25,727 bases of DNA from a virus. A model generated the notes under the pieces. That model made no database searches, was not told the DNA's origin, and worked only from the letters and a program-made list of their open reading frames with translations. Within the stretch, counting starts at the first letter, position 1. Each line of letters starts with the position of its first letter. The stretch spans positions 1 through 25,727 of IMG/VR virus record IMGVR_UViG_3300007734_000517; one strand, written 5' to 3'. A program made the position numbers and the translations under genes. Positions 6,758-25,727 of this stretch are shown here, piece by piece.

Positions 6758-6793
6758 GAATTTGGAATGCGTAGATTGATGAGGCAACAGAAT

Positions 6794-7258
6794 ATGCAAG
6801 ACATTGCAACCATTAACACCGACAACATCACAAAGATGAGTCAGTCGGCAATTGAAAAGGTATGCATGTTTGAGCAGTTGATGTTGACTTTGCCGCAAGT
6901 TGTGATGCCTGTAACGCACACACTGCACGGTGGAGTTTACTCGCGGACACTCACTATTCCAGCAGGAGTAGTCATCACTGGTGGTTTCATTCAGGTTCCA
7001 ACGACACTAATAATCAACGGTCGTGGAACCATTTACGCAAATGACGAGACGATGGAAGTCGATGGATATAAAGTGATTGTTGCAAGTGCTGGACGCAAAC
7101 AAATATATTCAGCGCACGAAGACACGACTGGAACAATGTTCTTTGCAACAAACGCAAAGACCGTTGAAGAGGCTGAAAATGAATTTACGATGGATGCTCA
7201 CATGCTCTTATCCCGAACACACGACCACTTGAATACTGAAATTATCACAGGAGAATGA
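6794..7258 (+). CDS. Conserved cupin-like phage protein
   Basis: A 154-aa protein of a type commonly found just after terL in podoviruses. Its sequence 'MQDIATINTDNITKMSQSAIEKVCMFEQLMLTLPQV...HTLHGGVYSRTLTIPAGVVITGGFIQVPTTLIINGRGTIY...GYKVIVASAGRKQIYSAHEDTTGTMFFATNAKTVEEAENEF' shows the run of short beta strands and 'IPAGVVITG' turn of small beta-barrel (cupin-like) proteins. The function is not established; a virion or assembly role is inferred from position. I chose ATG 6794, preceded by TGAGG at 6780-6784. ATGs at 6767 and 6779 are alternatives without good ribosome sites. Confidence 0.75.
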   Translation: MQDIATINTDNITKMSQSAIEKVCMFEQLMLTLPQVVMPVTHTLHGGVYSRTLTIPAGVVITGGFIQVPTTLIINGRGTIYANDETMEVDGYKVIVASAGRKQIYSAHEDTTGTMFFATNAKTVEEAENEFTMDAHMLLSRTHDHLNTEIITGE

Positions 7259-11012: not shown

Positions 11013-12029
11013 ATGGCTACTCTTTCTACAACAAACCTCACTTTGGCTGATTGGGCGAAACGAACAGATCCAGATGGTCGCGTTCCTGTTGTCGCAGAAC
11101 TTCTGTCGCAAACCAACGAAATTCTTGATGACGCTGTCTTCAAGGAAGGCAACTTGCCAACTGGTGAGCGTGTTGTAATCCGTACAGGATTGCCAACCGT
11201 TTACTGGCGCGCACTGAACCAAGGTATTCCAAGCACCAAGTCAACGACTGCACAAGTCGATGAGGCGTGTGGCATGTTGGAAGCGCGTTCTGAAGTTGAC
11301 AAGGATCTTGCAATGTTGAATGGCAACACGGCTCAGTTCCGTTTGTCAGAAGACACTGCGTTCTTGGAAGCAATGAACCAAACCCAAGCGACCACAATGT
11401 TCTATGGCAACCCTGCCACTGAACCAAAATCGTTCCTCGGTTTGGCTGGTCGATACTCAAGTCTGTCGGGCGGAAACGCAGCAAATGTTCTTAGCGCTGG
11501 CGGTTCTGGTTCTGACAACACTTCGGTGTTCTTGGTCTGCTGGGGTGACAATACCGTGTATTGCCCATTCCCAAAGGGTTCCAAGGCTGGTCTGATCCAT
11601 GAGGATCTCGGCGAGCAAACCGTGTATGACTCTTCAAATCGTATGCAAGCGTATGCGACTCGTTACCAATGGAAGAACGGTCTTGTTGTAAAGGACTGGC
11701 GTTATGTTGTTCGTATTCCAAACATCGATGTTTCTGATTTGATTGGTCAAACTGGTACACAGGCTTCAACTGCTGCCACAAACATCATCAAGTTGATGGC
11801 TCGCGCTATCTACCGCATTCCAAACATGACAATGGGTCGTTGCGCGTTCTATATGAACCGTACCGTACACAGCGGCATGGCTTTGGCTGCGTTGGACAAG
11901 AGCAATGCAGTGTTGAATATCAACCAAGGTCTGACTCAATTCGGTCAACCAAACAGTTGGTTGTCGTTCCTGGGCGTACCACTTCGTAAGGTTGATTCTT
12001 TGGTCAACACAGAATCCGTTGTTTCCTAA
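11013..12029 (+). CDS. Major capsid protein
   Basis: A 338-aa shell protein of the BPP-1/podovirus capsid type (HK97-fold lineage). Recognisable blocks are 'TLADWAKRTDPDGRVPVVAELLSQTNEILDDAVFKEGNLPTGERVVIRTGLPTVYWRALNQG', 'STTAQVDEACGMLEARSEVDKDLAMLNGN', 'FRLSEDTAFLEAMNQTQATTMFYGNPATEPKSFLGLAGRYSSL' and the C-terminal 'FLGVPLRKVDSLVNTESVV'. No separate prohead protease is seen nearby and there is no N-terminal delta domain, consistent with a scaffold-dependent rather than a cleaved shell. A strong AAAGGACA site and codon bias toward well-translated forms suggest high expression. Confidence 0.96.
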   Translation: MATLSTTNLTLADWAKRTDPDGRVPVVAELLSQTNEILDDAVFKEGNLPTGERVVIRTGLPTVYWRALNQGIPSTKSTTAQVDEACGMLEARSEVDKDLAMLNGNTAQFRLSEDTAFLEAMNQTQATTMFYGNPATEPKSFLGLAGRYSSLSGGNAANVLSAGGSGSDNTSVFLVCWGDNTVYCPFPKGSKAGLIHEDLGEQTVYDSSNRMQAYATRYQWKNGLVVKDWRYVVRIPNIDVSDLIGQTGTQASTAATNIIKLMARAIYRIPNMTMGRCAFYMNRTVHSGMALAALDKSNAVLNINQGLTQFGQPNSWLSFLGVPLRKVDSLVNTESVVS

Positions 12030-12057
12030 TTCAAGTCTCTAAGAAAGGACAAATAAA

Positions 12058-12522
12058 ATGATTACTGATAATTTTCTCCGATTGTCTGGTTCACTAACGG
12101 CTGGTACTGCAACTGGCCAAGCCGTAACTGCTACAGCAAATTCAACCAATGTCGTTGATCTCTCGCTTGCGCGAGATGTTGGCGAAGGCGAAGATTTGTA
12201 TGTGCAGTTTACTGTTGGAACTGCGTTTACCGCAGCAGGTTCGGCTACTTTGACTCCAACAATTGTTGTTTCTGCTGCTGATACTCTTTCAACTCCAACC
12301 ACAATTGCTACGGCTGGTACTATTGCTGTTGCAACTTTGGTTGCTGGATACTCATTTGCGGTTCGTTTGAATCCACTAATTGCTTCGCTTGGATTGCGTT
12401 ATCTGGGAGCAATTTATACTGTTGCTACTGGCCCAATGACTGCTGGAACAATCACAGCAGATATTGTTACTGAGATCCAAGACGGCAAGAAGTTCTACGC
12501 GTCTGGTTTCACTGTTCTTTAA
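12058..12522 (+). CDS. Bbp16-type capsid cement protein
   Basis: A 154-aa beta-rich protein resembling the Bbp16 family, which decorates or cements the BPP-1 capsid at its threefold positions. The pattern is 'AVTATANSTNVVDLSLARDVGEGEDLYVQFTVGTAFTAAGSATLTPTIVVSAADTLSTPTTIATAGTIAVATLVAGYSFAVRLNP...LRYLGAIYTVATGPMTAGTITADIV'. It directly follows the capsid gene with an almost identical ribosome site (AAAGGACA), consistent with matched high expression. Confidence 0.88.
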   Translation: MITDNFLRLSGSLTAGTATGQAVTATANSTNVVDLSLARDVGEGEDLYVQFTVGTAFTAAGSATLTPTIVVSAADTLSTPTTIATAGTIAVATLVAGYSFAVRLNPLIASLGLRYLGAIYTVATGPMTAGTITADIVTEIQDGKKFYASGFTVL

Positions 12523-12537
12523 TTTAAGGAGTCACTT

Positions 12538-12735
12538 ATGGCACAAGTCAAAGCAGTTACAAAGTGTTTCATCGACAACTCTATTCGCGAAGAAGGCGAT
12601 GTCTTTGAATACAACGGCGCACCAAACACGAATGTCGTTCTTGTCGGAGCGGCTGTAGCAGAGGTGGCGGATGAACCTAAGGTGAAACAGAAATGGTCAC
12701 CAAAGGCGAAACGCGATGCTGAAGACTTGGGTTGA
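12538..12735 (+). CDS. Small conserved structural-region protein
   Basis: A 65-aa protein: an N-terminal beta-like part ('MAQVKAVTKCFIDNSIREEGDVFEYNGAPNTNV') and a basic tail ('KVKQKWSPKAKRDAEDLG'). Similar small proteins ('FIDNSLR..GDVFEY') occur between capsid and tail genes in many phages; their role is unknown. A strong AAGGAG site precedes it. It is the last gene before the terminator. Confidence 0.75.
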   Translation: MAQVKAVTKCFIDNSIREEGDVFEYNGAPNTNVVLVGAAVAEVADEPKVKQKWSPKAKRDAEDLG

Positions 12736-12767
12736 AATGACTCGCTAGTTACAAAGTTGCCCCAAAG

Positions 12768-12805
12768 CGAGGGGAGCAGTTGACCCCTGCTCTCCTCGTT
12801 TCTTA
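12768..12805 (+). terminator. Rho-independent terminator after the capsid genes
   Basis: A 12-bp stem, CGAGGGGAGCAG (12768-12779) with CTGCTCTCCTCG (12787-12798), contains a single G-U pair, a 7-nt loop and a following TTTCTT. It separates the capsid unit from the tail genes and would make late capsid mRNA more abundant than downstream tail mRNA if read-through is partial. Confidence 0.85.
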
Positions 12806-12819
12806 TCAGGAGATCTCGC

Positions 12820-13488
12820 ATGGCCTCAGTCGTAGACATCTGCAATCTCGCGCTCGCGCACTTAGGCGATGACGCAACCGTCTCCAGCATTGATCCGCCA
12901 GAAGGATCTGCTCAAGCCGAACACTGCAAGCGTTTCTACGCCATAGCGCGCGACACGCTGCTTCAACTGCATCCTTGGAACTTTGCGTCCAAGCGTATTG
13001 CGTTGGCTGAATTAACAAACACAGTCACCACTTGGGACTACTCGTACGCAGTCCCATCCGATTGTCAAACGGTTGTGTCCGTTTTGGCTGATGACGCCCA
13101 CGATGACTACGCTGGTCGATTGATTCCGACTGACACGCCTTACTTCCCACCTGTTGTAGTTGCTGGCTCGTACACGCCGCAACCGTACGGCGTTGAAGTT
13201 GACACGCTTGGCAACAAGATAATCCGAACCAACCAAGAAGCCGCCGTGTTGCGATACCAGGCTTTGATCACAGATTCAACCAAGTTTGATGCTTTGTTTG
13301 TTCTGACTTTGAGTTGGCACCTTGCCAGTATGTTGGCAGGGCCGATCATCAAGGGTGACGCTGGTTCCGCAGAAGCAAAGCGATGCACTCAAATGATGGC
13401 TGGATACTTGCAAACTGCGAAAGCATCTGACAGTAATCAGCGCAACATCAAGCCAGAACACATTGTTCCTTGGACGAGTGGGCGCTAA
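12820..13488 (+). CDS. Head-tail adaptor, T7 gp11-type tail tube protein A
   Basis: A 222-aa protein of the gp11 (tail tubular protein A) family, which forms a ring between the portal and the nozzle. Characteristic blocks are 'MASVVDICNLALAHLGDDATVSSIDPPEGSAQAEHCKRFYAIARDTLLQLHPWNFASKRIALAEL', 'WDYSYAVPSDC', 'VLRYQALITDSTKFDALFVLTLSWHLASMLAGPI' and 'IVPWTSGR'. T7 gp11 is 196 aa, a close length. A good CAGGAG site precedes the start. The next gene follows after 3 bases. Confidence 0.93.
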   Translation: MASVVDICNLALAHLGDDATVSSIDPPEGSAQAEHCKRFYAIARDTLLQLHPWNFASKRIALAELTNTVTTWDYSYAVPSDCQTVVSVLADDAHDDYAGRLIPTDTPYFPPVVVAGSYTPQPYGVEVDTLGNKIIRTNQEAAVLRYQALITDSTKFDALFVLTLSWHLASMLAGPIIKGDAGSAEAKRCTQMMAGYLQTAKASDSNQRNIKPEHIVPWTSGR

Positions 13489-13491
13489 ACG

Positions 13492-15948
13492 ATGCCAACA
13501 ACCCGCACATTCAACCGATCATTTGCGGGTGGCGAGTTGTCGCCAGAAATGTTTGGTCGAATCGACGATCAGAAGTTCCAGTCTGGCGCGGCAAAGATGC
13601 TTAACTTTGTGGCATTGCCGCAAGGCCCTGCCCAGAACCGCGCTGGCACCAAGTTTGTGCAAGAAGTCAAAGACAGCACCAAGAAAACACGAATCATTCC
13701 GTTTACATACAGCACCACTCAAACAATGGTGATTGAATTGGGTGCTGGATACATGCGATTCCATACGCAAGGCGCAACACTGTTGGCAGGAATTGGCGCC
13801 GCGTACAACAACGCAACACCGTACACGGTTGGAAGCATGGTCAGTTACGGCGGTTCAAACTATTATTGCATTCTTGCATCAATTGGCAATCTGCCAACCA
13901 ACGCGACATATTGGTTTTTGATATCTAGTCCCGCATACGAGATTCCAAATCCGTACGCGGAGGCCGACCTATTTGATATCCATTATGTGCAGTCAGCAGA
14001 TGTGATCACGCTTGTGCATCCAAATTATGCACCGCGTGAATTGCGTAGACTTGGAGCAACGCAATGGACTTTAGTTGTCATATCGTTTGCATCAACCGTG
14101 TTGCCACCAACAGGATTGGCTGTTGCCGTTACCACTCCAGCAGGGCCAGCCGCTGACACAAAGACTGCAATGCTTTATGTTGTGACGGCAATTGGAACAG
14201 AATTAGTTGATGAATCTGCCGCATCCGCAATTGTTACATCCGCAAATCAAAATATATTTGTTACAGGCGCATTTAACACAATTAGTTGGACTGCGTCAGC
14301 GGGAGCAACAAGATACAATGTCTACAAGTTGCAAGGCGGCTTGTTTGGATACATTGGAAGCACGACTGGTACAAGCATTATTGATGACAATATTGCACCA
14401 GACCTTGGACAAACTCCACCAATTTATGACAATGACTTTGTAAGTGCAGGAAATTATCCAGGCGCGGTAAGTTACTACCAACAGCGTCGAGTATTTGCAG
14501 GAACAACAAACGCACCGCAAAAAATTTGGATGACCAAATCTGGAACTGAATCAAACTTTAGTTATGGACTTCCACTTAAAGACGATGACAGAATTGAATT
14601 TCAGGTTGCTGCGCGTGAAGCAAACACGATCAGGCACATTGTCCCATTAACGCAATTGTTACTGTTGACTGGATCAGCGGAATGGAAAGTAACGAGTGTC
14701 AATTCTGATGCAATTACACCAACTACAATTTCTGTTTCTCCGCAGTCGTACATTGGATCAAACAATGTACAACCATCAATTATTAATAACAGCATGGTCT
14801 ATTGCGCGGCGCGTGGCGGCCATGTGCGCGAATTGGGATACTCATGGCAGTCAAACGGATATATCACAGGCGATCTGTCACTTCGGGCTTCACACTTATT
14901 CGATAATTACACAATTGACGACATGTGCTATTCCAAAGCGCCGCAACCAATCGTGTGGTTCATTTCATCGACTGGACTGTTGTTGGGTCTGACCTATGTT
15001 CCTGAACAGCAGATTGGCGCTTGGCACCAGCACGACACGGACGGACTGTTTGAAAGTTGCGCTGCCGTCTCCGAAAGCAATGAGGATGTCCTGTATGTGG
15101 TGGTAAACCGCACCGTAAATGGCAACACGGTTCGTTATGTTGAACAATTCCAAAGCAGGGTAATTAATCTGTTAGAAGACTGTTACTTTGTTGACTCAGG
15201 CGTTACTTATGACGGTAACAATACTACGGTTACGACTGTAACGGTCACAGGTGGAACACTTTGGGGAACGACTGAAATTCTGACTATTACGGCGTCCACT
15301 CCAATCTTTGCTTATCCCGCGCTGACCGACATCGATGATGCGTTTGTGTTTACGGATACGGACGGAACCAAGTACAGGCTGACAATTGAAGGATGCTCTT
15401 CAACCACGGTTGTGACTGCTAGACCAGACAAGGTTCTGGCGGTGGCGTTCCGCAATGTGCCTATATCAAATGGCGCGTTTGCAAGAAATACTGTGTCTGG
15501 TCTGTCACACTTGGAAGGCAAGACCGTTTCTATATTGGCGGACGGCGCAGTATTGCCGCAAGAAGTTGTTGTTGGCGGCTCAATTACAATCGAACGCGCT
15601 GCGGTCAAGATCCATATTGGTCTTGAGTATTTCAGCGATCTGCAAACTTTGCCGTTGTCTATCAACATTGACGCATTTGGTCAGGGTCGAGTCAAGAACA
15701 TTAATCAGGCTTGGGTTCGCGTGTTTAAGTCGAGCGGTTTATTTGTCGGCCCTACCGAAGACAAGTTGACCGAAGCCAAGATGAGAACCACTGAACCGTA
15801 CGGCGAACCGCCAGCGCTGCGTAGCGACGAGATCAATGTCAACATCACGCCAACATGGGCGCAAGGCGGTCAGATTTACATTCGCCAACACGATCCGCTT
15901 CCGCTGACTGTGGTTGGGTTCACTATAGAAGCGGTCATAGGAGCATAA
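13492..15948 (+). CDS. Tail nozzle, T7 gp12-type tail tube protein B
   Basis: An 818-aa protein of the gp12 (tail tubular protein B) family, forming the hexameric nozzle at the end of the short tail. It starts with the typical 'TFNRSFAGGELSPEMFGRIDDQKFQSGAAKMLNFVALPQGPAQNRAGTKFV', then 'IPFTYSTTQTMVIELGAGYMRFH'. Further on come 'VSYYQQRRVFAGTTNAPQKIWMTKSGTESNF', 'LTGSAEWKV', 'MVYCAARGGHVRELGYSW' and 'EQQIGAWHQHDTDG'. T7 gp12 is 794 aa. The Thr/Gly-rich beta section near residues 205-300 may be an inserted surface domain. Confidence 0.93.
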   Translation: MPTTRTFNRSFAGGELSPEMFGRIDDQKFQSGAAKMLNFVALPQGPAQNRAGTKFVQEVKDSTKKTRIIPFTYSTTQTMVIELGAGYMRFHTQGATLLAGIGAAYNNATPYTVGSMVSYGGSNYYCILASIGNLPTNATYWFLISSPAYEIPNPYAEADLFDIHYVQSADVITLVHPNYAPRELRRLGATQWTLVVISFASTVLPPTGLAVAVTTPAGPAADTKTAMLYVVTAIGTELVDESAASAIVTSANQNIFVTGAFNTISWTASAGATRYNVYKLQGGLFGYIGSTTGTSIIDDNIAPDLGQTPPIYDNDFVSAGNYPGAVSYYQQRRVFAGTTNAPQKIWMTKSGTESNFSYGLPLKDDDRIEFQVAAREANTIRHIVPLTQLLLLTGSAEWKVTSVNSDAITPTTISVSPQSYIGSNNVQPSIINNSMVYCAARGGHVRELGYSWQSNGYITGDLSLRASHLFDNYTIDDMCYSKAPQPIVWFISSTGLLLGLTYVPEQQIGAWHQHDTDGLFESCAAVSESNEDVLYVVVNRTVNGNTVRYVEQFQSRVINLLEDCYFVDSGVTYDGNNTTVTTVTVTGGTLWGTTEILTITASTPIFAYPALTDIDDAFVFTDTDGTKYRLTIEGCSSTTVVTARPDKVLAVAFRNVPISNGAFARNTVSGLSHLEGKTVSILADGAVLPQEVVVGGSITIERAAVKIHIGLEYFSDLQTLPLSINIDAFGQGRVKNINQAWVRVFKSSGLFVGPTEDKLTEAKMRTTEPYGEPPALRSDEINVNITPTWAQGGQIYIRQHDPLPLTVVGFTIEAVIGA

Positions 15949-15950
15949 AT

Positions 15951-16676
15951 ATGTCGCAACTTAGTTTCACACAATGGAATTCTCAGATCCACACGGACAG
16001 TGCCGCTGGCGCGGTGACTTTTACTAATGCTGGAAGGGATATTTCTAATTCTGCTGGCGGCGGCGGTTTTGCGTCAAATCTTGCCGAAGGACTGCAAACG
16101 CTTGGCCCTATCATGTCGATCTTTGGCGCCGCCAACAGCGCAATCGGAACCTTCTACCAAGCCAAGAGCGCACAGAATCAACTCAAGAGCCAAGCACTTA
16201 ACCAGCAGTTCCAGTCTGAGATGTCTGCGATCAACGCCAAGAGCGCAGAGTTTGGCGCGCAGCAGTCGCTGCTGTCTAGCGAGCGTCAGATCGGTCGATA
16301 CACAATGGGCGCTGGTCAGGCTAAATCGTCAGCCAAGGCGTCAATGGCGGCTCGTGGCATTCAGGGTGGCGTAGGAAGCGCCGCAGAGGTCATTGGAAGC
16401 ATGGATCTGATCAAAGAGATCGACAGGATGACTATGTCTGCGAACAGCGTACGACAGGCTGAATCCATTAGGAACCAAGCCATGAACTACCGCAACCAGT
16501 CCGTGATGTCTGGCTTGAGCGCCGACAACTTGAACACCACGGCTGGAACGATTAGTCCTGGCTTTGGCATGTCAACCAGTCTGTTGACCAGCGCCGCATC
16601 CATTGGACAGAACTGGGCGCGTGACAATCGAATGAATCAATTGATTGCTGCGGATTCAGCAGCAAGATTTGGATAA
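15951..16676 (+). CDS. Ejection (internal virion) protein, gp14-like
   Basis: A 241-aa protein in the position of T7 gp14 and similar in style. It has an Ala/Gly/Ser-rich N-terminal segment ('GPIMSIFGAANSAIGTFYQAKSAQNQLKSQALNQQFQSEMSAINAKSAEFGAQQ'), a long Gln/Ala/Ser helix, 'AKASMAARGIQGGVGSAAEVIGSMDLIKEIDRMTMSANSVRQAESIRNQAMNYRNQSVMSG', and a C-terminal 'GTISPGFGMSTSLLTSAASIGQNW'. Such proteins leave the capsid with the DNA and help form a conduit through the outer membrane. The start at 15951 has a TAGGAGC site; the longer reading from 15855 overlaps the nozzle gene. Confidence 0.85.
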   Translation: MSQLSFTQWNSQIHTDSAAGAVTFTNAGRDISNSAGGGGFASNLAEGLQTLGPIMSIFGAANSAIGTFYQAKSAQNQLKSQALNQQFQSEMSAINAKSAEFGAQQSLLSSERQIGRYTMGAGQAKSSAKASMAARGIQGGVGSAAEVIGSMDLIKEIDRMTMSANSVRQAESIRNQAMNYRNQSVMSGLSADNLNTTAGTISPGFGMSTSLLTSAASIGQNWARDNRMNQLIAADSAARFG

Positions 16677-16679
16677 ACA

Positions 16680-18839
16680 ATGCCAACAGTACCTTCAAAT
16701 TTTGTTCCACAGGCCGACATGCAAGACAGGGGCGAAGTCCCACTACAGGCGCCAGGCGTTGAACCAGTCCGCAACTTAGCGGCTGATCAAGAAGTCCAGT
16801 TGGGCGAAGCAATGACTCGCGCTGGCAATGTTGCTTGGAATGTGGGTAGCAACATTCAAGATCACATTGATGAGTCTGGCGCCAAGGCTGCGGATGTGCA
16901 GTTCCTGCAATCAACACAGCAACTATTGAACGGCAAGAATGGGTATTTCAATCAAGAGGGAAAAAACGCGGAAACCAACTTTCAGGCGACAAATGAGGCG
17001 ATGCTTCAAACCGCCAACTCAATATCCGACAGTCTTCCAAACGAAACACAGAAGCAGATGTTTAAGCAAGCCGCCGCAAGAAACTTAGTATCGTTTCAAG
17101 GGCAAGTGCTTGACCACAGAAACAAGCAAGCGCGTGTGTATGCGTTAAACGAATCGGAAGCAAGAGCCACGGAATACGCTGGTCAAGCAGCACAAAACTG
17201 GGACAGCATTGGCAAGAAAGACGAAGCGGGAAATCCAATTGGAAAGTACAGCGTTGCGCTTGGCGTTGTTGATGTTGAGACAAGTCACATTGGACAATTG
17301 CTTGGATACGCGCAAGATTCGGAGCAGATGAAGGCGTTGAAACAAAAGTTTAATGGCATCACCGCAACTGGCGTTGTTGATAAATATGCCAAGGATGGCG
17401 ACTATGTTTCAGCGTCAAATTATCTAAAAGATCAAGATGAAAATGGAATGCTTGATGTCAAGACGCGACAATCACTAATGGACTTTGTTGACAAGAATCA
17501 GAAGATTCAATCAACTATTGAGGCCGCCGAAAGCATTGTCTACGAAGGACACGCCAAGTCATTTTCTAGGTTTGGTTACAAGCCAGTCATTGATCAAATG
17601 ACATCCAAGGTAATGGACACTAAATACTTAGACGAAGGCGTTGACTATTCGGCGGCGGCTAGAACAAAGGTGACGGCGCCGCAAGATTGTGTTGTCGAAA
17701 TCATCAAACAAGAAGGCAAGTACGACACAATTACATTGCGAATGCGAGACGGAACAAAGGCAACAATCACCAACCTTGACAACAAACTTGTTTACGAAGG
17801 TGAAAGCATTCAATCTGGAACACAGATCGCCAGCGCTGGAACTGATTTGATGCATTACACAATGGAACGCAATGGCGAATTTATAAATCCGCAACAAGCA
17901 AATGCATTCAACGCCAAAGAAGACATGAAAAATATAAAGCCGCCACCAAGTTTGCGGGACGCTTTATACATTGCAAATCAAATTGACAATAAAGATTTGA
18001 AAGAAGCCGTCAAAAATCAAGTGCATAGATTGTGGTCTGAAAATGAAGGCTTGAAACAACAAGAATCTCAAACTTTGCATTTGGATGCGTTGCGATTTAT
18101 GGCAGATCCAAAGCATCCAAGAGTGTCTGACATTCCAATTGCAATGAGAATGAAGATGGAGCAAACTAGCCCAGGCACTCTTGCGGAACTTGTTAAATCA
18201 GAAAATGCAAAGGATGACGCCGCAACTATGTGGGATGCCGCGCAGAATCCAGCCAAGTACACACCAGCATATTTAACCAGTCCAGAGATGGCTAACAAAC
18301 TTTCAACGAGTTCAAAGATAGAACTGCTTAACAAGTACAACAACTTTGACGCCATGCGTGAATCGAGTTTGAATTCAGAACAATTCAAGCAAACGCTGTT
18401 GGACGCTGGTCTTGAAAACATTGTGTTTCCATCTGGAACAGATGAACAAAAACACGCGCTGGCAATGCAAGGTCTTGCAATTAAACAAATGGCAGACGAA
18501 AGAATTGCTAGTCAGGAAAAGGAAACGCGCAAAAGACTTTCCCCAGCCGAGAGGCAAGACATTTATGACAAGGTGCTTATGGATATGGCGACCCCAACTG
18601 GATCTTCGTTTTGGCATTGGAACGGCGGATACAGATACGACCCTAAGCCAATTGTCACCATGACCAAAGAAGAACGCCAATCGGCTGTTGTTACGGTTGG
18701 AAATCAAGAAGTGTTCTTGCGCGACATCCCAAAAGACTTTGCGGATCAATCAACCGCCGCATTGAAAAAAGTTGGATTTGCAAATCCGTCGGTTCAACAA
18801 ATAGCACAACAATGGTTAGAGTTTAAAAATAAAAAATGA
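16680..18839 (+). CDS. Ejection protein (gp15-like position) with inactive M23-like domain
   Basis: A 719-aa largely helical protein between the gp14-like and the giant ejection protein, the position of T7 gp15. About residues 328-405 match the layout of an M23/lysostaphin-type peptidoglycan peptidase: 'VTAPQDCVVEII', 'ITLRMRDGTKATITNL', 'VYEGESIQSGTQIASAGTD', 'LMHYTMERNGEFINPQQA'. However, the usual ligand and catalytic histidines are replaced: 'IRHG' becomes 'LRMRDG', 'YAHL' becomes 'ITNL', and 'HLH' becomes 'LMH', keeping only H392. It may therefore bind cell wall without cutting it. Flanking regions are Lys/Glu/Gln-rich helices with little recognisable similarity. It is coupled to the next gene by ATGA. 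Confidence 0.8.
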   Translation: MPTVPSNFVPQADMQDRGEVPLQAPGVEPVRNLAADQEVQLGEAMTRAGNVAWNVGSNIQDHIDESGAKAADVQFLQSTQQLLNGKNGYFNQEGKNAETNFQATNEAMLQTANSISDSLPNETQKQMFKQAAARNLVSFQGQVLDHRNKQARVYALNESEARATEYAGQAAQNWDSIGKKDEAGNPIGKYSVALGVVDVETSHIGQLLGYAQDSEQMKALKQKFNGITATGVVDKYAKDGDYVSASNYLKDQDENGMLDVKTRQSLMDFVDKNQKIQSTIEAAESIVYEGHAKSFSRFGYKPVIDQMTSKVMDTKYLDEGVDYSAAARTKVTAPQDCVVEIIKQEGKYDTITLRMRDGTKATITNLDNKLVYEGESIQSGTQIASAGTDLMHYTMERNGEFINPQQANAFNAKEDMKNIKPPPSLRDALYIANQIDNKDLKEAVKNQVHRLWSENEGLKQQESQTLHLDALRFMADPKHPRVSDIPIAMRMKMEQTSPGTLAELVKSENAKDDAATMWDAAQNPAKYTPAYLTSPEMANKLSTSSKIELLNKYNNFDAMRESSLNSEQFKQTLLDAGLENIVFPSGTDEQKHALAMQGLAIKQMADERIASQEKETRKRLSPAERQDIYDKVLMDMATPTGSSFWHWNGGYRYDPKPIVTMTKEERQSAVVTVGNQEVFLRDIPKDFADQSTAALKKVGFANPSVQQIAQQWLEFKNKK

Positions 18840-21800
18840 TTGATCCAAACACAGAAGATCAGGCAGTTTCCGCCGCGCCGCCATCAATTCAACCTGTTGC
18901 TGTTGATTACAAACTAGATGCTTCCGCAAAGGCAATGTCTTTGCAAGAGCCAGCGCCAACGCCAGAACCATTTGAACCACCAAGTCAAATGGCTGATGCA
19001 TTGCGTAAATCAGCAGAAGGAATGTTCAATCAAAGCAGACAGGAATTGAACGCTTCTATCTTTCAAGCCACATCAAAGAATCCTGACGAGGAAGCGGCTG
19101 CACAGAAACTTGGCGCCGCAACTGGCGTTGGATCAGGGATTGCTTTGCGTAACAAAAACGAACTTGAGCGCCGTAAGGCAATGAATGACGCTCGAAATCT
19201 TGATCTTACAAATAACAATCCAGCCTTGGCTAACAAGTTAATTGCAGATCCGCAGTTCGCAGCCGTGGCGCATGACGATCTTTCGTGGTGGGACAAATAT
19301 GGAAAACTCGCGCACAGCGTCATGTTTCCAACCGCAAATCCCGCATGGTTTGCGGAATCAGTCATGCAGACTTCGATGGGCAAAGCGTTTGCTGGAGGAG
19401 TGCAAGTTCCACAAATTACTGAATTGCAAAGAGAACAAGCGTTGTCTCCAAATGGAATACTGCCACCAGAAAGGGAGCAAGAACTTCAGGCGTTAGAAGC
19501 GCAGCAAGCGCAAACACAAAAAGAAACTGGCGGCATGTTAAACACGCCAGCATCAATGGCTGGAAACATTGTTGGAATGGGCGAAAGTTTGGCGAAGTTC
19601 ACGACCGCTGGCGCAACTATTGGCGGAACCGCTGGCTTGCTTGGCGGCCCATTCGCTGAAGTAACTGTTCCAGGCGGAATTATTGCGGGAGCAACAGGCG
19701 GATTTAGCACTGGAATGGCTACTGAATTTTCCAAGCAAGCAATGTACTCAAACTACAGGCAGTCACGTTTGCAAGGACTTTCACATGAACTGGCTTTGAG
19801 CAACGCGCACATTGTTGGAATTGCAAGCGCGGTCTTCAACGCTGGCGCGCTTAAATTGGTTGGCGCTCCAATTGGGGTTGCGATCTCAAGTTTGGCTGCA
19901 CCTGTCACAAAATCTGTGGTTGTTCCAACAGCCAAGGCTATCTTGATCGACTATGTGAAAGCGTATGGTCTTCACGAAGTTGGCGCGTTTGGTCTAGGCG
20001 CAGGATTAAAGGCGTCTGAAATTGGTGCCGCAAAAATATCTGGCATCAAAACAACCGAAGGCGCAATGAATATTGCCGAAGAAATTTTGACATCAGGCGT
20101 TCACACCGCCTACGACTTTGCGTTGCTGAATGCTTTGTTTCCGTTGTTGCCAGCGGCTGCTCAATACAGGGTGTTAAAAGATTCTCAAATGCGTCAGGCA
20201 AAATTCAAAGCCAAAATTAAATCTGTAGCCGAGAACAATAAGACAAAAAAGAGAAGTCCTGAACAAATGCAGAATGGCATTGAATCTGTAACACCCGAAT
20301 CAGAGCAGTTTGTTTATGTGGACAAAGATCAATTAAGCAATGTTTTGATGCAGTCTGGCGCATCTGCAAATGAAATTGAACAAATACTTCCTGGCGTCCT
20401 TGCACAACTAAAAGCCGAAAATCCTGAAATAGCAATTAATAGCGCCAACTATTTGGCAAACGAAGTTGCGTCAACAAATATTGGCAAGGTTCTTGAACCA
20501 AACCTAAGAATGGAAAAGGGCGGTCTTTCTCCAAATGAAATCTTGCAACAGAACATTGACGCCAACCGTGTCCGCGCAGAATCTAAAGCAGCCGTTGAAC
20601 AATACGCAAAGATGAACGCTGGGTTTGTTGAGAGCGCGCAAAAGGTTGAGGATTTGTATTTCAATCAATTTGTTGCCGCTGGACTTGATTCCAAGTTTGC
20701 ACGATTGAAGGCAATGTTGATTCGCGATTGGTATGCAACCAACGCCGCTCGCGCAAACATGATGCCTGAACAATTGCAAGCGCAGAAAGCATACGAAGTC
20801 ATCAGCGAGCAACAAGCGCAAGAGCGAGCCGCACAGGCCGCGCAACAGGCGCCAGCAAAGCCGTTTGTTCGTCCTCCTCATAAAATTGTTGCTAGCGAAA
20901 AATTATTGAGAGCCGCAAAAAAACAAGGAACACCAGATTCTGTATTAGCAGAAGCGGAAGACATTGCATCAAAGTTGGCAAACGAAGAAGGTGCAAATGG
21001 ATTATGGATGGCGAATTTAGACAACCAAGAACAGGGAGATGCCCGAAGAATGAAAGGGCAGTTGTCTGTAGAAAAACACAAAGGAAATCCAAATGTACAA
21101 GTTAAATTTGGAAATGTAGAACTTAGTGTTGTAATGTCATCCGTTGACCCAAATATTACAACAAAAACTCTTGAAACAGCAATTGCAAACATAAATCAAA
21201 TTGATAATCCGCAAGACGGATTGCCACTTCAATTTGTATCTATTGGTATTTCAAATGGAAAGCCAGTAGTGACTTTGAGACGAGTAAGTGTTTCTGAATC
21301 AGCCGTTCGCGCAGAACTAGAAAAAAGACGCGCACAAGAGCAACAGGCGCCAGCGCAAGGATCGTTGGAGCAAGCGTCCCGCGCTGACTTGAATCTTGGT
21401 GAACAGGCAGCGTTTAACGAAGCAAGTCAACGACCTGAAATAGTCACATGGGCAAAAGAAAAGTTTGGTGACCGCACGGCGCCTGACGGATCAAGCGTGT
21501 GGCAGAACTTCACTGAGTGGTTTGGCGACAGCAAAGTTGTTGACGCTGAAGGTAAGCCGATGGTGGTTTATCACGGAACAGGAACTGCAATAGATGAATT
21601 TAAAGAAGAGTTTACTGGACAAGGAAATGATCAACTTGGAACAGGATTTTACTTTACAACATCAGAAAATCAAGCAAAGGGATATGAAACAAATCGCCTT
21701 CCTGCGGCAAATGGTTTAACAAAACCAGGTGGAGAGGATTCTCCAAATACAATTAACGCTATTTTGTCAATTAAAAATCCGCTTAAATTAGATAAAAATA

Positions 21801-24800
21801 CAGAAACAACAAAAGATTTTATTTTAACAAAAAAACAAGTTGAACAAATATTATTGTCTGCACCAAATATTTTCGATGAAAATGAAAGTCCATTAACAAA
21901 TTGGATAGATAGCGGCGGAAAGCCATACACAAAAACACAAGTTCTTTCTGTAGCAAAAAATTACGATAATCTTTTACACATACAAAATGATTTTTTTAGA
22001 AACGAAGGAACTGCATTTAGAAAAGCAGTAAACAAAGCAACTGGATTTGATGGAGTTGAAAAAACTTTTGCAGATGGAACAAAGCATTATGTTGCTTGGT
22101 TTCCTACTCAAATCAAATCAGCCATAGCCAATGTCGGCACATTTGGTCAGCAAGATCCGAACATATTGAGGCAGAGCGCAGTTGAAAATTTGCAAATGGT
22201 TGCAGAGCGTGGTCAAAGAGTATTGGCAAAAAACTCTAATATTTCTAAAGAAGAGCAGGTTGCTATTGAGGCATCATCTAAGGAAACTGGAGTGCCTGTA
22301 AGTGAAATAGAAAGTGCTGTAAGAAAAACTAAACTTGCACATCCAGAAGACCAAGGCTGGGCGCCGTTGGTTTATTCAAGAACAATCATTGTAGACGACA
22401 AGGTAGAACACGAGTTTCAAACGATTCCATATGATTTTAGTACCAGTCAAGAGGGAAATGCTTTAGAAGTTGGAAGCGAAGCATATACAAATAGAGTTGC
22501 GTCAATTGCAAAATCTATGACAGAAGAAGTTCGTTCCGTTCTTCGCCGTGCAAAATCTGGAGACAAAAACGCATTAAACATATTGGCCCAGGCTGGTTGG
22601 TACAAGGCGTTTAGATCTAGATTGCGACAAGAATTTGGCGGACTTGGAGATCTGTTTGCTGATCTTTTGGGTGCAACAAGTCCAAACACTCCAGTGCGCG
22701 GGAACTATTGGAACGCAATTGATTCTTTGCGTAGGGCAACAAGGGGAGATTTTGATGCGCTTATGCCTCAATGGGAAGCATGGGCTGACAAAATAGATCC
22801 GTTAGAGACAGATCTAAAAAGTTTTTTTAATGCTCAGTTGGCTCTTGGAAAAACAAAGGCCGACATACGGCGGATGCCAGAATTCATTCAGAAATTGGCT
22901 GAGGTAAAGGCTGCAAGAAAGGTTGGAGACGAACTACTTCCAACTAAAGAAACTGGAATGAAGTATGGGTTCAATGGGAAAAATGTTATTAGGGCAATGG
23001 TCAACTTGTGGCGCATTGTTAAAGATCCTGATACCGATATTGATCGCGGCGGAACCGCTCCAAAAGCAGTTACATTTTCTGGCAATTTAATTGGATTTAA
23101 ATCTAGAGCAACAATTGATGTTTGGGCTGCGCGATTTTTGCAAAGACTTAACGGCGGAAAACGAATTCCAAGTGCAGCAGAAAGTGGTGTTAGTGGCGAA
23201 CTGAAAGAATCTGGCGTCACGACATTGCAATTTGGCTTTGGTCAAGATGTGTTTACGGAAGCCGTAGGATTAATTAGAAATGATCCAGAATTGCAAATGA
23301 ATGATGTGTTGGCTTCCATAAACGATGATGATTTACAAGCGGTTGTATGGTTTATTGAAAAAGAATTTTGGACTGTAAACGATTGGACAAGTGTTGCTGG
23401 CGAGGGCGGATCATTTGAACTTGAAGCAAATCTTTCTGGAACATCGAAGCAAGAAAGAGTTACAGAATTGCGTAAAATTGTTGACGCTTCTCCTGTCAGC
23501 AAGGATGTCATTTTAGTTGAAACCGATACCACTAAAGCCGTCAAAGCAATTGAAGACTTTGACAATTTGCACAAAGATGAAATTAAAGAACTTCAGGAAC
23601 TTGAAACAGAAATAATTCCTAAGTACAAAGGTTCCGAAAAAAGAAAAGCAGAACTTAAAAAACTTACGCGTCCAGAAAAAGGTAGCGAAGTAGATCTTGC
23701 TAAAAGACTTCTTGGAAACATTGGCCGCGCATCTGACAGACTTCAAAAAACTGAGGCAAATAGAATTGCTGCTAAAGCAGAACTGGCTTCTTTAGAAAGA
23801 TCTGTTGACAGATTTATTGGTGGATTATCAATTCAGATGTCAATGGATACGCAAGGAACATCATTTGTTCCAGCAGATTCTGACATGGCGCGTCTATCTC
23901 ATTCTATTAAAACAGCAATTTATGAATCAGATTCAAGCAATGTTGTTCTTGCATCAAAGGCTTTATCTACTGAAGGCAGATACGGCGGCGTGGAACGAGC
24001 GCTAGATTTAGAAGTTGTTGCAAGAGAGGGATACAACGCAAATTTATTATGGAAGGAAATGTTGCAACAAGCCAAAGAAGCGCGTCAAGATAGTGCGTTT
24101 CTTTCTAGGGTTTTAAGAACAGATGAAGACTATGACCCTATTACGCATAGACCTGGAATAGAAATATATTTCAGAGAAGCAACTTCTAAAGTAGAACTTG
24201 ACAAAGTTCTAGCAGAACTTGCTAAGGAAAATGTTGAGTTTCTTACGGTGGTTGTAGACGGCAGAAGGCAGACTGCGTTTGTCGCTGGGGCAATGCCATC
24301 TGCGGTTGGCGTCAGAATGCAATACATACCTGAATTTGAACAGCGGTATGGCATGGACAATATGACAGATATGGACGATGCTGCAATTGCCGCCAAAGTA
24401 GAAGCAAAGGCTGCTGAATTAAGAACGATTGCTGCCAAAGTTACAGCGGCTATTAAGGGCGTTTCATTTGCTGGTCAATTTTGGTACGATACTCAAGTTG
24501 CTTTTAGTCACCAATATCAGGAGAAAATAGATGCCATCACAACTACAGAGTCTGAAGGAATCGTTGAAGACGCTGGAGCCGCAGTTTGGCAAGGACAATC
24601 CATTGGTTCAGGGATTGAAGATGCAAATCGCCAGATTAGAGAAACCTCTCTCCAGCAATCCAGTAGAGACATACTCAGCGGGAATGCGACCAGAGCCGAC
24701 CAACTAGGTCAAGCAGCCACAGGCGGCGCACGGAAATTCAATGCAACATTTGATCCGTCCACATTACTTGCGACAATTTATAAAACTGGAAATAAATCAA

Positions 24801-25727
24801 AATGGTTGCATGAGTTATCGCATTTCTTTTTGCATGTGACAATGGACTTGGCATCAAAAGAAAGTGTTGATTCTTTAACAAGGCAAGACGCTCAAATATT
24901 GCTTGACTGGTTTGGCGTCAAGGATGTTGCCGCATGGAATGCAATGACTCTTGACGAGCAGCGCCAGCACCATGAAGCGTTTGCGTACAACTGGGAAATC
25001 TATTTGCACGAAGGCAAGGCGCCAAGCGTTGGACTTCAGCGCGTGTTTGATGCGTTCTCGCGTTACCTAAAGCGTGTGTATGTTTCTATTCGTACTCAAC
25101 TAAACGAAACTTATCGCAAGGAAAATGGCGTAGATCTTCCAATCCTGAACGACGAAGTCAAGGGCGTTATGGATCGAATGCTTGCTAATGACGCTCAGAT
25201 TTCACAGCGCGAGGCCATCGACAACATTAAGGCTCAATGGGAAACGCAGGAAGAGTCTGGGATGAATGACGGCGAGTGGGCTGCTCTGAAGGAAATGGAA
25301 AGGGAAGCGCACGACCAGGCTGAATCTGATTTAAACAAAGCAAGCCTGAAGCAGGTCGAGTGGTTGACCAAGGCAACAGAGCGGTTGAACACTCAGGCAA
25401 TGATGGAATTCAAGCGCTTGCGTAAGACGGTATCCGCTGAAGAAACCGCAAAGATGGAGAAGGAACCGCTACGAAAAGCAGAAAATTTCCTAAAGACTGG
25501 AAAGATGTTTGACACGGACGGCAATGAAATTGAAGTAGCGGAAGGCTTTAAACTGGACAAGTCCGCTGTTGGCGCCATGTATCCGACTAGCACGACTGGT
25601 TTGGCGCCAGCCGTTGACTTGAGCAAGTTGAAAGGCATGACAATGGATGGCGGACTGGCGCCAGACCTAGTAGCGGAAATGTTTGGGTTATCTAGCGGCG
25701 ACGAACTAATTCGCAAACTTGTTGATC
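18836..25727 (+). CDS. Giant polyvalent ejection protein (partial), with ADP-ribosyltransferase-like and zinc-peptidase-like domains
   Basis: One frame stays open from ATG 18836 to the window end, at least 2297 codons; the 3' end lies outside. I read the frame through and saw no stop. Visible order: a Pro-rich N-terminus; Gly/Ala-rich hydrophobic stretches (about 255-295 and 318-405) suited to membrane insertion; a polyvalent-protein region with 'VYVDKDQLSNVLMQSG' (about 485-640); a Gln/Ala linker; an AT-rich module (about 669-834); an ART-like domain (about 895-1105; 'VVYHGT' H913, 'GFYFTT' Y939, 'QIKSA...NVGTF' from Q1092). Next come a conserved region with 'FGFGQDVF' and 'DLQAVVWFIEKEFW' (about 1168-1510), a coiled coil (about 1565-1660), a block starting 'GIEIYFRE' (about 1770-1900), and a zincin-like domain with HELSH (1992-1996) and 'HHEAFAYNWEIYLHEGKAP' (from 2045). 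It follows gp14- and gp15-like genes as T7 gp16 does, so delivery into the host is likely. Confidence 0.9.
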   Translation, partial: MIDPNTEDQAVSAAPPSIQPVAVDYKLDASAKAMSLQEPAPTPEPFEPPSQMADALRKSAEGMFNQSRQELNASIFQATSKNPDEEAAAQKLGAATGVGSGIALRNKNELERRKAMNDARNLDLTNNNPALANKLIADPQFAAVAHDDLSWWDKYGKLAHSVMFPTANPAWFAESVMQTSMGKAFAGGVQVPQITELQREQALSPNGILPPEREQELQALEAQQAQTQKETGGMLNTPASMAGNIVGMGESLAKFTTAGATIGGTAGLLGGPFAEVTVPGGIIAGATGGFSTGMATEFSKQAMYSNYRQSRLQGLSHELALSNAHIVGIASAVFNAGALKLVGAPIGVAISSLAAPVTKSVVVPTAKAILIDYVKAYGLHEVGAFGLGAGLKASEIGAAKISGIKTTEGAMNIAEEILTSGVHTAYDFALLNALFPLLPAAAQYRVLKDSQMRQAKFKAKIKSVAENNKTKKRSPEQMQNGIESVTPESEQFVYVDKDQLSNVLMQSGASANEIEQILPGVLAQLKAENPEIAINSANYLANEVASTNIGKVLEPNLRMEKGGLSPNEILQQNIDANRVRAESKAAVEQYAKMNAGFVESAQKVEDLYFNQFVAAGLDSKFARLKAMLIRDWYATNAARANMMPEQLQAQKAYEVISEQQAQERAAQAAQQAPAKPFVRPPHKIVASEKLLRAAKKQGTPDSVLAEAEDIASKLANEEGANGLWMANLDNQEQGDARRMKGQLSVEKHKGNPNVQVKFGNVELSVVMSSVDPNITTKTLETAIANINQIDNPQDGLPLQFVSIGISNGKPVVTLRRVSVSESAVRAELEKRRAQEQQAPAQGSLEQASRADLNLGEQAAFNEASQRPEIVTWAKEKFGDRTAPDGSSVWQNFTEWFGDSKVVDAEGKPMVVYHGTGTAIDEFKEEFTGQGNDQLGTGFYFTTSENQAKGYETNRLPAANGLTKPGGEDSPNTINAILSIKNPLKLDKNTETTKDFILTKKQVEQILLSAPNIFDENESPLTNWIDSGGKPYTKTQVLSVAKNYDNLLHIQNDFFRNEGTAFRKAVNKATGFDGVEKTFADGTKHYVAWFPTQIKSAIANVGTFGQQDPNILRQSAVENLQMVAERGQRVLAKNSNISKEEQVAIEASSKETGVPVSEIESAVRKTKLAHPEDQGWAPLVYSRTIIVDDKVEHEFQTIPYDFSTSQEGNALEVGSEAYTNRVASIAKSMTEEVRSVLRRAKSGDKNALNILAQAGWYKAFRSRLRQEFGGLGDLFADLLGATSPNTPVRGNYWNAIDSLRRATRGDFDALMPQWEAWADKIDPLETDLKSFFNAQLALGKTKADIRRMPEFIQKLAEVKAARKVGDELLPTKETGMKYGFNGKNVIRAMVNLWRIVKDPDTDIDRGGTAPKAVTFSGNLIGFKSRATIDVWAARFLQRLNGGKRIPSAAESGVSGELKESGVTTLQFGFGQDVFTEAVGLIRNDPELQMNDVLASINDDDLQAVVWFIEKEFWTVNDWTSVAGEGGSFELEANLSGTSKQERVTELRKIVDASPVSKDVILVETDTTKAVKAIEDFDNLHKDEIKELQELETEIIPKYKGSEKRKAELKKLTRPEKGSEVDLAKRLLGNIGRASDRLQKTEANRIAAKAELASLERSVDRFIGGLSIQMSMDTQGTSFVPADSDMARLSHSIKTAIYESDSSNVVLASKALSTEGRYGGVERALDLEVVAREGYNANLLWKEMLQQAKEARQDSAFLSRVLRTDEDYDPITHRPGIEIYFREATSKVELDKVLAELAKENVEFLTVVVDGRRQTAFVAGAMPSAVGVRMQYIPEFEQRYGMDNMTDMDDAAIAAKVEAKAAELRTIAAKVTAAIKGVSFAGQFWYDTQVAFSHQYQEKIDAITTTESEGIVEDAGAAVWQGQSIGSGIEDANRQIRETSLQQSSRDILSGNATRADQLGQAATGGARKFNATFDPSTLLATIYKTGNKSKWLHELSHFFLHVTMDLASKESVDSLTRQDAQILLDWFGVKDVAAWNAMTLDEQRQHHEAFAYNWEIYLHEGKAPSVGLQRVFDAFSRYLKRVYVSIRTQLNETYRKENGVDLPILNDEVKGVMDRMLANDAQISQREAIDNIKAQWETQEESGMNDGEWAALKEMEREAHDQAESDLNKASLKQVEWLTKATERLNTQAMMEFKRLRKTVSAEETAKMEKEPLRKAENFLKTGKMFDTDGNEIEVAEGFKLDKSAVGAMYPTSTTGLAPAVDLSKLKGMTMDGGLAPDLVAEMFGLSSGDELIRKLVD
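20842..20856 (+). repeat. 15-bp direct repeat, left copy, flanking an in-frame module
   Basis: GCAACAGGCGCCAGC, identical to 21340-21354. The distance is 498 bases (166 codons), so both copies are read in the same frame and lie in Gln/Ala linkers on either side of an AT-rich domain of the giant protein. Confidence 0.8.
21340..21354 (+). repeat. 15-bp direct repeat, right copy, flanking an in-frame module
   Basis: GCAACAGGCGCCAGC, identical to 20842-20856 and in the same codon phase. It marks the return to GC-richer sequence before the ADP-ribosyltransferase-like domain. Confidence 0.8.

What the first reader, a model, noticed from the sequence alone, without database searches (positions are those of the whole stretch)
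18836..25727. Giant polyvalent protein in the gp16 slot of the ejection cassette
The frame is open for at least 2297 codons, far longer than T7 gp16 (1318 aa), and combines membrane-suited segments with at least two toxin/effector-type domains. Its position after the gp14- and gp15-like genes suggests the virion carries it into the host before any phage gene is expressed. Polyvalent proteins (Iyer and Aravind's term) are thought to counter host defences on entry. The combination of conduit-forming and effector domains in one chain is the strongest candidate here for a poorly described system.
Basis: partly seen in the sequence, partly recalled or inferred. Interest (0 to 1): 0.8.

Follow-up and report, generated by a model that had tools for sequence, protein, structure and literature searches.

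The report
Phage injection protein with swappable effectors
This is a very large protein that a short-tailed phage probably injects into its host first: a constant delivery frame with a central slot in which related phages carry different toxin-like enzymes, from none at all to more than 2,000 amino acids' worth.

Summary
An ATG at 18836 opens 2,297 codons with no stop to the contig end, directly after gp14-like and gp15-slot genes. The gene is cut by the end of the contig; complete relatives predict about 3,270 aa.

It belongs to PHROG 9880, the family of Bordetella phage BPP-1 Bbp10. In 80 distinct complete relatives the gene has a constant N-terminal shell (median 654 aa) and a constant zinc-peptidase/C-terminal part (median 1,318 aa). 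Between them lies a bay of 1 to 2,232 aa, which explains 97% of gene-length variance.

The window's bay holds an ADP-ribosyltransferase with its H-Y-D triad intact (H913, Y939, D1072) and an 818-aa module (divergent DUF7178 plus an alpha/beta domain). That module matches nothing in 50,697 phage records and no solved fold. Other bays hold PBECR RNase-like, MuF-C or GNAT domains, or are empty.

Bay contents are exchanged. Relatives with about 95% identical shells and tails can have unrelated bays. Window and L015 share 95% identical DNA at the edge of the ART, but only 68% in the peptidase region.

"Polyvalent protein in the gp16 slot" is supported by content and synteny. Homology to T7 gp16 was not established. 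Virion packaging and injection remain inferred. This is a new variant of a known kind.

The parts
18836..25726 (+). Giant open frame, 2297 codons, truncated by the contig end (Bbp10/PHROG 9880 family)
18836..20860 (+). Constant N-terminal shell, aa 1-675
   Evidence: profile over 46 relatives; shell HMM end at aa 675
19061..19318 (+). LPD22 domain, aa 76-161
   Evidence: Pfam PF18834, 48.1 bits, cut-off 28.6
19553..19915 (+). Gly/Ala-rich, weakly hydrophobic stretch of the shell, aa 240-360 (possible membrane-interacting part)
   Evidence: hydropathy; inference
20861..24685 (+). Cargo bay, aa 676-1950
   Evidence: bounded by shell and core profiles; length varies 1-2232 aa across relatives
20861..21340 (+). 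Orphan part of the bay, aa 676-835, no relative found in the set
   Evidence: phmmer search; no Pfam match at E 0.001
21341..21580 (+). 5' seam, aa 836-915, 95% DNA identity with L015; includes the first ART strand (VVYHG)
21482..22198 (+). ART-PolyVal domain, aa 883-1121; H913, Y939, D1072 triad present
   Evidence: Pfam PF18760 75.1 bits; alignment
22103..22180 (+). 3' seam, aa 1090-1115 (..QIKSAIANVGTFGQQDPNILRQ), 94% DNA identity with L015
22172..24625 (+). 818-aa second module ('mod2'), aa 1113-1930: all-helical divergent DUF7178 part (about aa 1215-1582) plus alpha/beta part (about aa 1657-1904)
   Evidence: 40 loci in IMG/VR; 24-member alignment; AlphaFold2 pLDDT 80; all 24 members match DUF7178, best E=1e-5
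24686..25726 (+). Zincin (CLCA_X-like) peptidase core, aa 1951-2297, start of the constant C-terminal part
   Evidence: alignment A1, invariant HExxH; PMC3650047 for Bbp10
24809..24823 (+). HELSH zinc-binding motif, aa 1992-1996
16680..18839 (+). Second ejection gene (gp15 slot), 719 aa, with Peptidase_M23 at aa 319-404
   Evidence: Pfam PF01551 38.5 bits; PHROG 10475 endolysin E=4e-20
15855..16676 (+). First ejection gene (gp14-like), 273 aa
   Evidence: PHROG 418 internal virion protein E=8.5e-11; PF24072 E=2e-4 below cut-off
11013..15948 (+). Major capsid, Bbp16, tail tube and nozzle genes: same order as BPP-1

Best explanation
The gene encodes the third ejection protein of a BPP-1-like podovirus. 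It is a delivery frame (N-terminal LPD22 shell plus C-terminal zincin/helical tail) with one main insertion bay for effector domains. Mechanism, step by step: the frame is packaged in the head and ejected after the gp14-like and M23-bearing gp15-slot proteins, helping to bridge the envelope (inferred from position and precedent). The frame carries the bay's enzymes into the cytoplasm before phage genes are expressed (inferred). There the HYD-type ART modifies host proteins or nucleic acid, and the second module acts on an unknown target, to disarm or redirect the host (inferred from domain family). The zincin next to the bay trims or releases parts of the chain (inferred). Shown here: the frame is constant and the bay is variable, dispensable and exchanged between phages as cassettes by recombination at conserved seams.
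For: Length partition in 80 distinct complete genes: shell sd 37 aa, tail sd 78 aa, bay sd 452 aa, with r2=0.974 between bay and total length. Near-empty bays in L118, L119 and L102. Cassette exchange: L092/L093 shell 96%, tail 95%, bay unrelated; L005/L059 96%/92%/unrelated. The reverse also occurs: L065/L079 shell 37%, tail 36%, bay 84%; L067/L074 33%/36%/81%. At DNA level, window vs L015 seams are 94-95% identical, the ART interior has no match and the core is 67.6%; fourfold sites 33/38 vs 40/67, p=0.004. Effector content of 44 distinct bays: ART 24, LPD3 3, DUF7178 3, PBECR1/3/5 two each, MuF_C 1, GNAT 1. BPP-1's bay holds PBECR1, 37.5 bits. Synteny with BPP-1, and with the N4 order gp52-gp51-vRNAP. 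Precedents: the N4 vRNAP, about 3,500 aa, is ejected (PMC12633501); the 4,515-aa DarB-like protein of JC1 was found in virions by MS (PMC9144972).
Against: No proteomic evidence for this family in virions was found in the papers searched. Homology to T7 gp16 was not established. Some ART alleles of relatives replace the triad tyrosine by W or F, so not every bay ART need be active. HExxH is kept even where the bay is empty, so cargo release cannot be the peptidase's only role. Some relatives carry cargo elsewhere (L142, L143 inside the core loop; L140, L144 behind the core).
Confidence: 0.72

Rival explanations
1. Purely structural reading: the whole chain is a large ejection/scaffold protein and the bay domains are inert spacers or pseudo-enzymes without a role in the host cell.
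For: Some ART alleles lose the triad tyrosine; the second module has no recognised enzyme fold.
Against: The window ART keeps H913, Y939 and D1072. Bays hold unrelated enzyme families known as toxins (ART, PBECR, GNAT). Module 2 keeps dozens of invariant polar residues over 24 diverse members. Spacers would not need exchange of catalytic interiors.
Confidence: 0.1
2. Lysis protein: the gene acts at the end of infection, as annotated for the homologues in Caulobacter phage RapA ('lysis protein').
For: Annotation in RapA and BL94.
Against: A separate holin and L-Ala-D-Glu endolysin lie downstream in MW202722, and DC33 has the same endolysin. No peptidoglycan-active family matched in the giant protein. 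The annotation has no stated evidence.
Confidence: 0.04
3. The zincin is the main effector and the bay domains are its companions: the peptidase cuts host proteins after entry rather than processing the chain.
For: The peptidase is the best conserved part of the family (H, E, H invariant in 44 tails) and is kept in empty-bay members. Iyer et al. list host proteolysis as one option (PMC5512222).
Against: Its constant place at the bay edge fits processing as well. N4 vRNAP is packaged unprocessed although it has a zincin (PMC5512222). No target is known.
Confidence: 0.14

Closest known systems
Bbp10 of Bordetella phage BPP-1 (Rauchvirus), PHROG 9880
   Same: Same gene position, same shell and zincin/tail, 34% identity over aa 1963-2297; its bay holds a PBECR1 domain.
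   Different: 2,052 aa, with a bay of about 150 aa instead of 1,275 aa; no ART and no module 2.
Polyvalent proteins of phages and conjugative elements (Iyer et al. 2017, PMC5512222)
   Same: Zincin hub, Tox-ART-HYD2-type ART, LPD domains, late-gene context.
   Different: That work surveys architectures in general. In the parts I read I found no description of this frame with a single bay, empty-bay members or DNA seams; Bordetella phage is not mentioned.
N4 virion RNA polymerase (gp50) and its role as third ejection protein (PMC12633501)
   Same: Giant multidomain chain in the slot after two smaller ejection genes; has a zincin (HELVH at aa 2228 onward).
   Different: The payload is one fixed RNA polymerase. 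No sequence similarity was detectable outside the general plan.
DarB-like 4,515-aa protein of Bcep22-like phages such as JC1 (PMC9144972)
   Same: Giant virion-associated multidomain protein of a podovirus, confirmed by mass spectrometry there.
   Different: Different family and genome context; described as anti-restriction.
Polymorphic toxins (Zhang et al. 2012, PMC3482391)
   Same: Constant trafficking part plus exchangeable toxin domains; peptidase for processing.
   Different: There the variable domain is at the C-terminus with an immunity gene; here it sits in the middle, and immunity genes were not looked for systematically.
T7 gp16 internal virion protein
   Same: Third gene of the ejection cassette.
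   Different: 1,318 aa with a transglycosylase at its N-terminus; homology not established.

Membership tests
Bbp10 family (PHROG 9880) | Sequence match to the family profile | tested here: met
   E=2.8e-87 for the window protein; shell and tail of relatives also match
Bbp10 family (PHROG 9880) | Gene order capsid - Bbp16 - tube - nozzle - gp14-like - peptidoglycan-enzyme protein - giant | tested here: met
Polyvalent protein | Two or more domains of disparate activity in one chain | tested here: met
   LPD22, ART-PolyVal, zincin motif, module 2
Polyvalent protein | Late-gene/virion context | tested here: met
Polyvalent protein | Transfer into the host cell with the DNA | not testable with these tools
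   needs virion proteomics and translocation assay
Tox-ART-HYD2 / ART-PolyVal | H, Y and D active-site residues | tested here: met
   H913, Y939, D1072 aligned with relatives; triad as defined in PMC5512222
Zincin peptidase (CLCA_X / MPTase) | HExxH motif conserved across the family | tested here: met
   HELSH at 1992-1996; H, E, H invariant in 44 tails
Zincin peptidase (CLCA_X / MPTase) | Third zinc ligand on a downstream helix and zincin fold | tested here: inconclusive
   invariant glutamates downstream but no structure predicted for this part
DUF7178 (second module, helical part) | Pfam gathering score 27 bits | tested here: not met
   19.1 bits for the window; all 24 members match at E <= 0.1, best E=9.7e-6
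T7 gp16 family | Sequence or fold similarity to gp16 | tested here: not met
   HHalign probability 0.2-9%; Foldseek of the L015 tail: T7 core protein only at rank 37, E=8.7
T7 gp16 family | N-terminal transglycosylase | tested here: not met
   LPD22 instead; peptidoglycan enzyme (M23) sits in the preceding protein
N4 virion RNA polymerase | Single-chain RNA polymerase domain | tested here: not met
   no such Pfam or PHROG match

The most novel reading that the evidence does not exclude
Podoviruses of this group run a polymorphic-effector system inside their ejection protein. Phages trade ART interiors and whole enzyme modules at short conserved DNA seams, much as bacteria trade polymorphic toxin tips. 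The 818-aa second module is a new host-directed enzyme injected before the first phage gene is expressed.
Probability: 0.4. Interest if true: 0.8.

Novelty: new variant of a known kind. Interest (0 to 1): 0.62.

Why it matters
If the frame-and-bay reading is right, the ejection protein of a common group of environmental podoviruses is a natural delivery vehicle with a defined insertion point, and the bay is a catalogue of enzymes that phages use in the first minutes of infection. It makes an old question directly testable, namely what injected proteins do to the host before phage transcription: isolates with an ART (Caulobacter phage RapA), with a PBECR1 domain (BPP-1) and prophages with an almost empty bay exist, so bay and frame functions can be separated genetically.

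Tried and rejected
1) Homology of shell or tail to T7 gp16: HHalign with T7 alone and with a 7-member gp16 alignment, sub-alignments, and an AlphaFold2 model of the L015 tail against the PDB. Nothing significant; the best was a GGYYP/GTYVP motif, E=0.0038 at 9% probability. 2) My guess from sequence pattern that the helical part of module 2 is an HhH-GPD DNA glycosylase: no such fold among the PDB matches, dropped. 3) phmmer of the window protein against PDB sequences: none. Profile of the shell against PDB hit designed PPR proteins by composition only, no matched stretch passing, dismissed. 4) NCBIfam: nothing for the window protein. 5) Module 2 in phage records: none; in plasmids two weak partial hits. 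6) A single-sequence scan of viral contigs for module 2 failed, while the alignment-based scan found 40 loci. 7) Virion proteomics of the family in the literature: BPP-1 work identified only the two capsid proteins; other searches gave none. 8) A first hmmbuild in a script failed silently for lack of a format flag and was redone.

Full report
WHAT WAS CHECKED. The window is a 25,727-base IMG/VR viral contig. The frame 18836..25726 starts with ATG, overlaps the stop of the previous gene by 4 bases, is open for 2,297 codons and runs off the contig. Relatives have single, uninterrupted frames in the same position, so the length is not an assembly accident.

NEIGHBOURHOOD. Upstream lie RecT-like, Gam-like and replication genes, then terminase, tail-fibre-like, portal, protease, major capsid GP7, Bbp16, tail tube, nozzle, a gp14-like protein (PHROG 418) and a 719-aa protein with a Peptidase_M23 domain in the gp15 slot. 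This is the order of Bordetella phage BPP-1 (bbp21 to bbp10), of MW202722 and of Caulobacter phage RapA. N4 has the corresponding order gp52, gp51, vRNAP. Position therefore makes this the third ejection protein; that is inference from synteny, not proof of packaging.

FAMILY. The protein matches PHROG 9880 with E=3e-87. Pfam finds LPD22 at aa 76-161 and ART-PolyVal at aa 903-1103, both above their cut-offs. A zincin motif HELSH lies at aa 1992-1996 and aligns with HExxH of all nine relatives compared; the flanking 350 residues are 34-49% identical. For BPP-1 Bbp10 this region (residues 700-1000) was already recognised as a CLCA_X metalloprotease (PMC3650047).

FRAME AND BAY. An alignment of the zincin core found at least 579 relatives in IMG/VR (80 kept) and 33 in species-representative bacterial and archaeal genomes, the named ones mostly Burkholderiales, Pseudomonas and other proteobacteria. 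In 80 distinct complete genes the shell measures 562-753 aa (median 654, sd 37), the part from zincin to C-terminus has a median of 1,318 aa (sd 78), and the stretch between them 1-2,232 aa (sd 452). The middle stretch alone explains 97% of the variance of gene length. In L118 and L119 (Burkholderiaceae prophage-like loci) and L102 the shell runs almost directly into the zincin, with only a short linker. So the middle is a dispensable insertion. Hydrophobic segments (KD19 >= 1.6) occur in 89% of tails, at a constant place about 153 residues from the C-terminus, in 26% of shells and in no bay. The membrane-suited parts thus belong to the frame and the effectors to the bay. The window's bay is aa 676-1950, and the expected full length is about 3,270 aa.

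BAY CONTENTS. Pfam on 44 mutually dissimilar bays: ART-PolyVal in 24, LPD3 in 3, DUF7178 in 3, PBECR1, 3 and 5 in 2 each, MuF_C in 1, GNAT in 1. BPP-1's small bay is a PBECR1 domain. In the window the ART keeps H913, Y939 and D1072, the H-Y-D triad that Iyer et al. give for ARTs of polyvalent proteins. Some relatives have W or F in place of the tyrosine.

THE SECOND MODULE. Residues 1113-1930 form an 818-aa module found in 40 IMG/VR loci but in none of 50,697 phage records. It occurs in the bay of this family, behind the zincin (L140, L144), and in giant proteins without this frame (L147-L151, L155 with InPase, ART and glucosaminidase, L166, L168-L175). It is therefore an independent unit. AlphaFold2 from 24 sequences gives mean pLDDT 80: a helical part (module residues about 103-470) and an alpha/beta part (545-792). 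No PDB match reaches E 0.001; the alpha/beta part weakly resembles ferredoxin-like proteins such as a phage SAM lyase (E=0.21). The viral library returns uncharacterised or polyvalent phage proteins. All 24 members match DUF7178, the window below the curated cut-off, while a related bay (L065) matches at 79 bits. I call the helical part a divergent DUF7178; its activity is unknown.

EXCHANGE. L092 and L093 share 96% of the shell and 95% of the tail but have unrelated bays; L005 and L059 likewise (96%, 92%, none). Conversely L065 and L079 share only 37% and 36% but have 84% identical bays, and window and L002 share 26% of the shell but 67% of the bay. Of 240 pairs with tails at least 60% identical, 62 have bays that match over less than 40% (pairs are not independent). 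At DNA level, window and L015 share aa 836-915 at 95% and aa 1090-1115 at 94%, with no match for the ART interior between them and 67.6% in the core. Fourfold-degenerate sites are 87% identical in the 5' seam and 60% in the core (Fisher p=0.004), which protein constraint alone does not explain. L002 and L006 match at 91.7% and 95.9% DNA identity outside the bay and only at the seams inside it. I conclude that ART interiors and larger modules are replaced by recombination. The seam protein motif (WFGDSKVV..G.P.VVYHG) also serves as the N-terminal edge of the ART fold, so conservation of the motif itself is partly functional.

MECHANISM. Shown: the constant frame, the exchangeable bay, intact ART and zincin motifs, and the position in the ejection cassette. 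Inferred: packaging, ejection, and action of the ART and module 2 in the cytoplasm before phage expression. Precedents are N4 vRNAP (PMC12633501), the MS-confirmed DarB-like giant of JC1 (PMC9144972) and the general argument of Iyer et al. (PMC5512222). The zincin sits at the bay edge and could release cargo. It is, however, also kept where the bay is empty, so it must have a role for the frame itself, or a target of its own.

LIMITS. The gene's last third is missing from the contig. Homology with T7 gp16 could not be shown by profiles or by a fold comparison of the L015 tail, so 'gp16 slot' is a statement of position. The census rests on the 80 best IMG/VR hits and one genome scan, not on all relatives, and includes loci shared by near-identical contigs (identical proteins were removed). 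I found no published virion proteomics for this family in the open papers held.

VERDICT. A real and well-founded finding. The polyvalent class is known. The fixed ejection frame with a swappable effector bay, with empty members and DNA seams, is a new variant worth testing in cultured relatives.

Noticed in passing
L142 aa 1833-1964; L140 aa 1353-2159: A second insertion site: an ART inside a loop of the zincin core (L142, L143), and module 2 placed behind the core (L140, L144).
   Followed up: partly
L155:2442-11801: A 3,120-aa polyvalent protein of another scaffold combines glucosaminidase, InPase, ART and module 2 (81-kb contig).
   Followed up: partly
window 16680-18839: The gp15-slot protein carries an M23 peptidase, while BPP-1 bbp11 is annotated with a transglycosylase: the peptidoglycan enzyme sits in the second, not the third, ejection protein.
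   Followed up: no
L012:13527-13982 (BPP-1 bbp10): The well-studied phage BPP-1 has a PBECR1 RNase-like domain between shell and zincin, although its record calls the protein 'crystallin beta/gamma motif-containing'.
   Followed up: yes
L188:2938-3615 (Dickeya phage JA13): A solo ART of about 225 aa related to the window ART, next to replication genes of a jumbo phage: a possible donor pool for bay cassettes.
   Followed up: no
L011 (PQ492659.1): Limnohabitans phage DC33 is filed under Inoviridae in the record's taxonomy line, but its gene content is that of a tailed podovirus-like phage.
   Followed up: no
window 6767-7258: A protein matching short tail fibre PHROGs lies between terminase and portal, as bbp23 does in BPP-1.
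   Followed up: no
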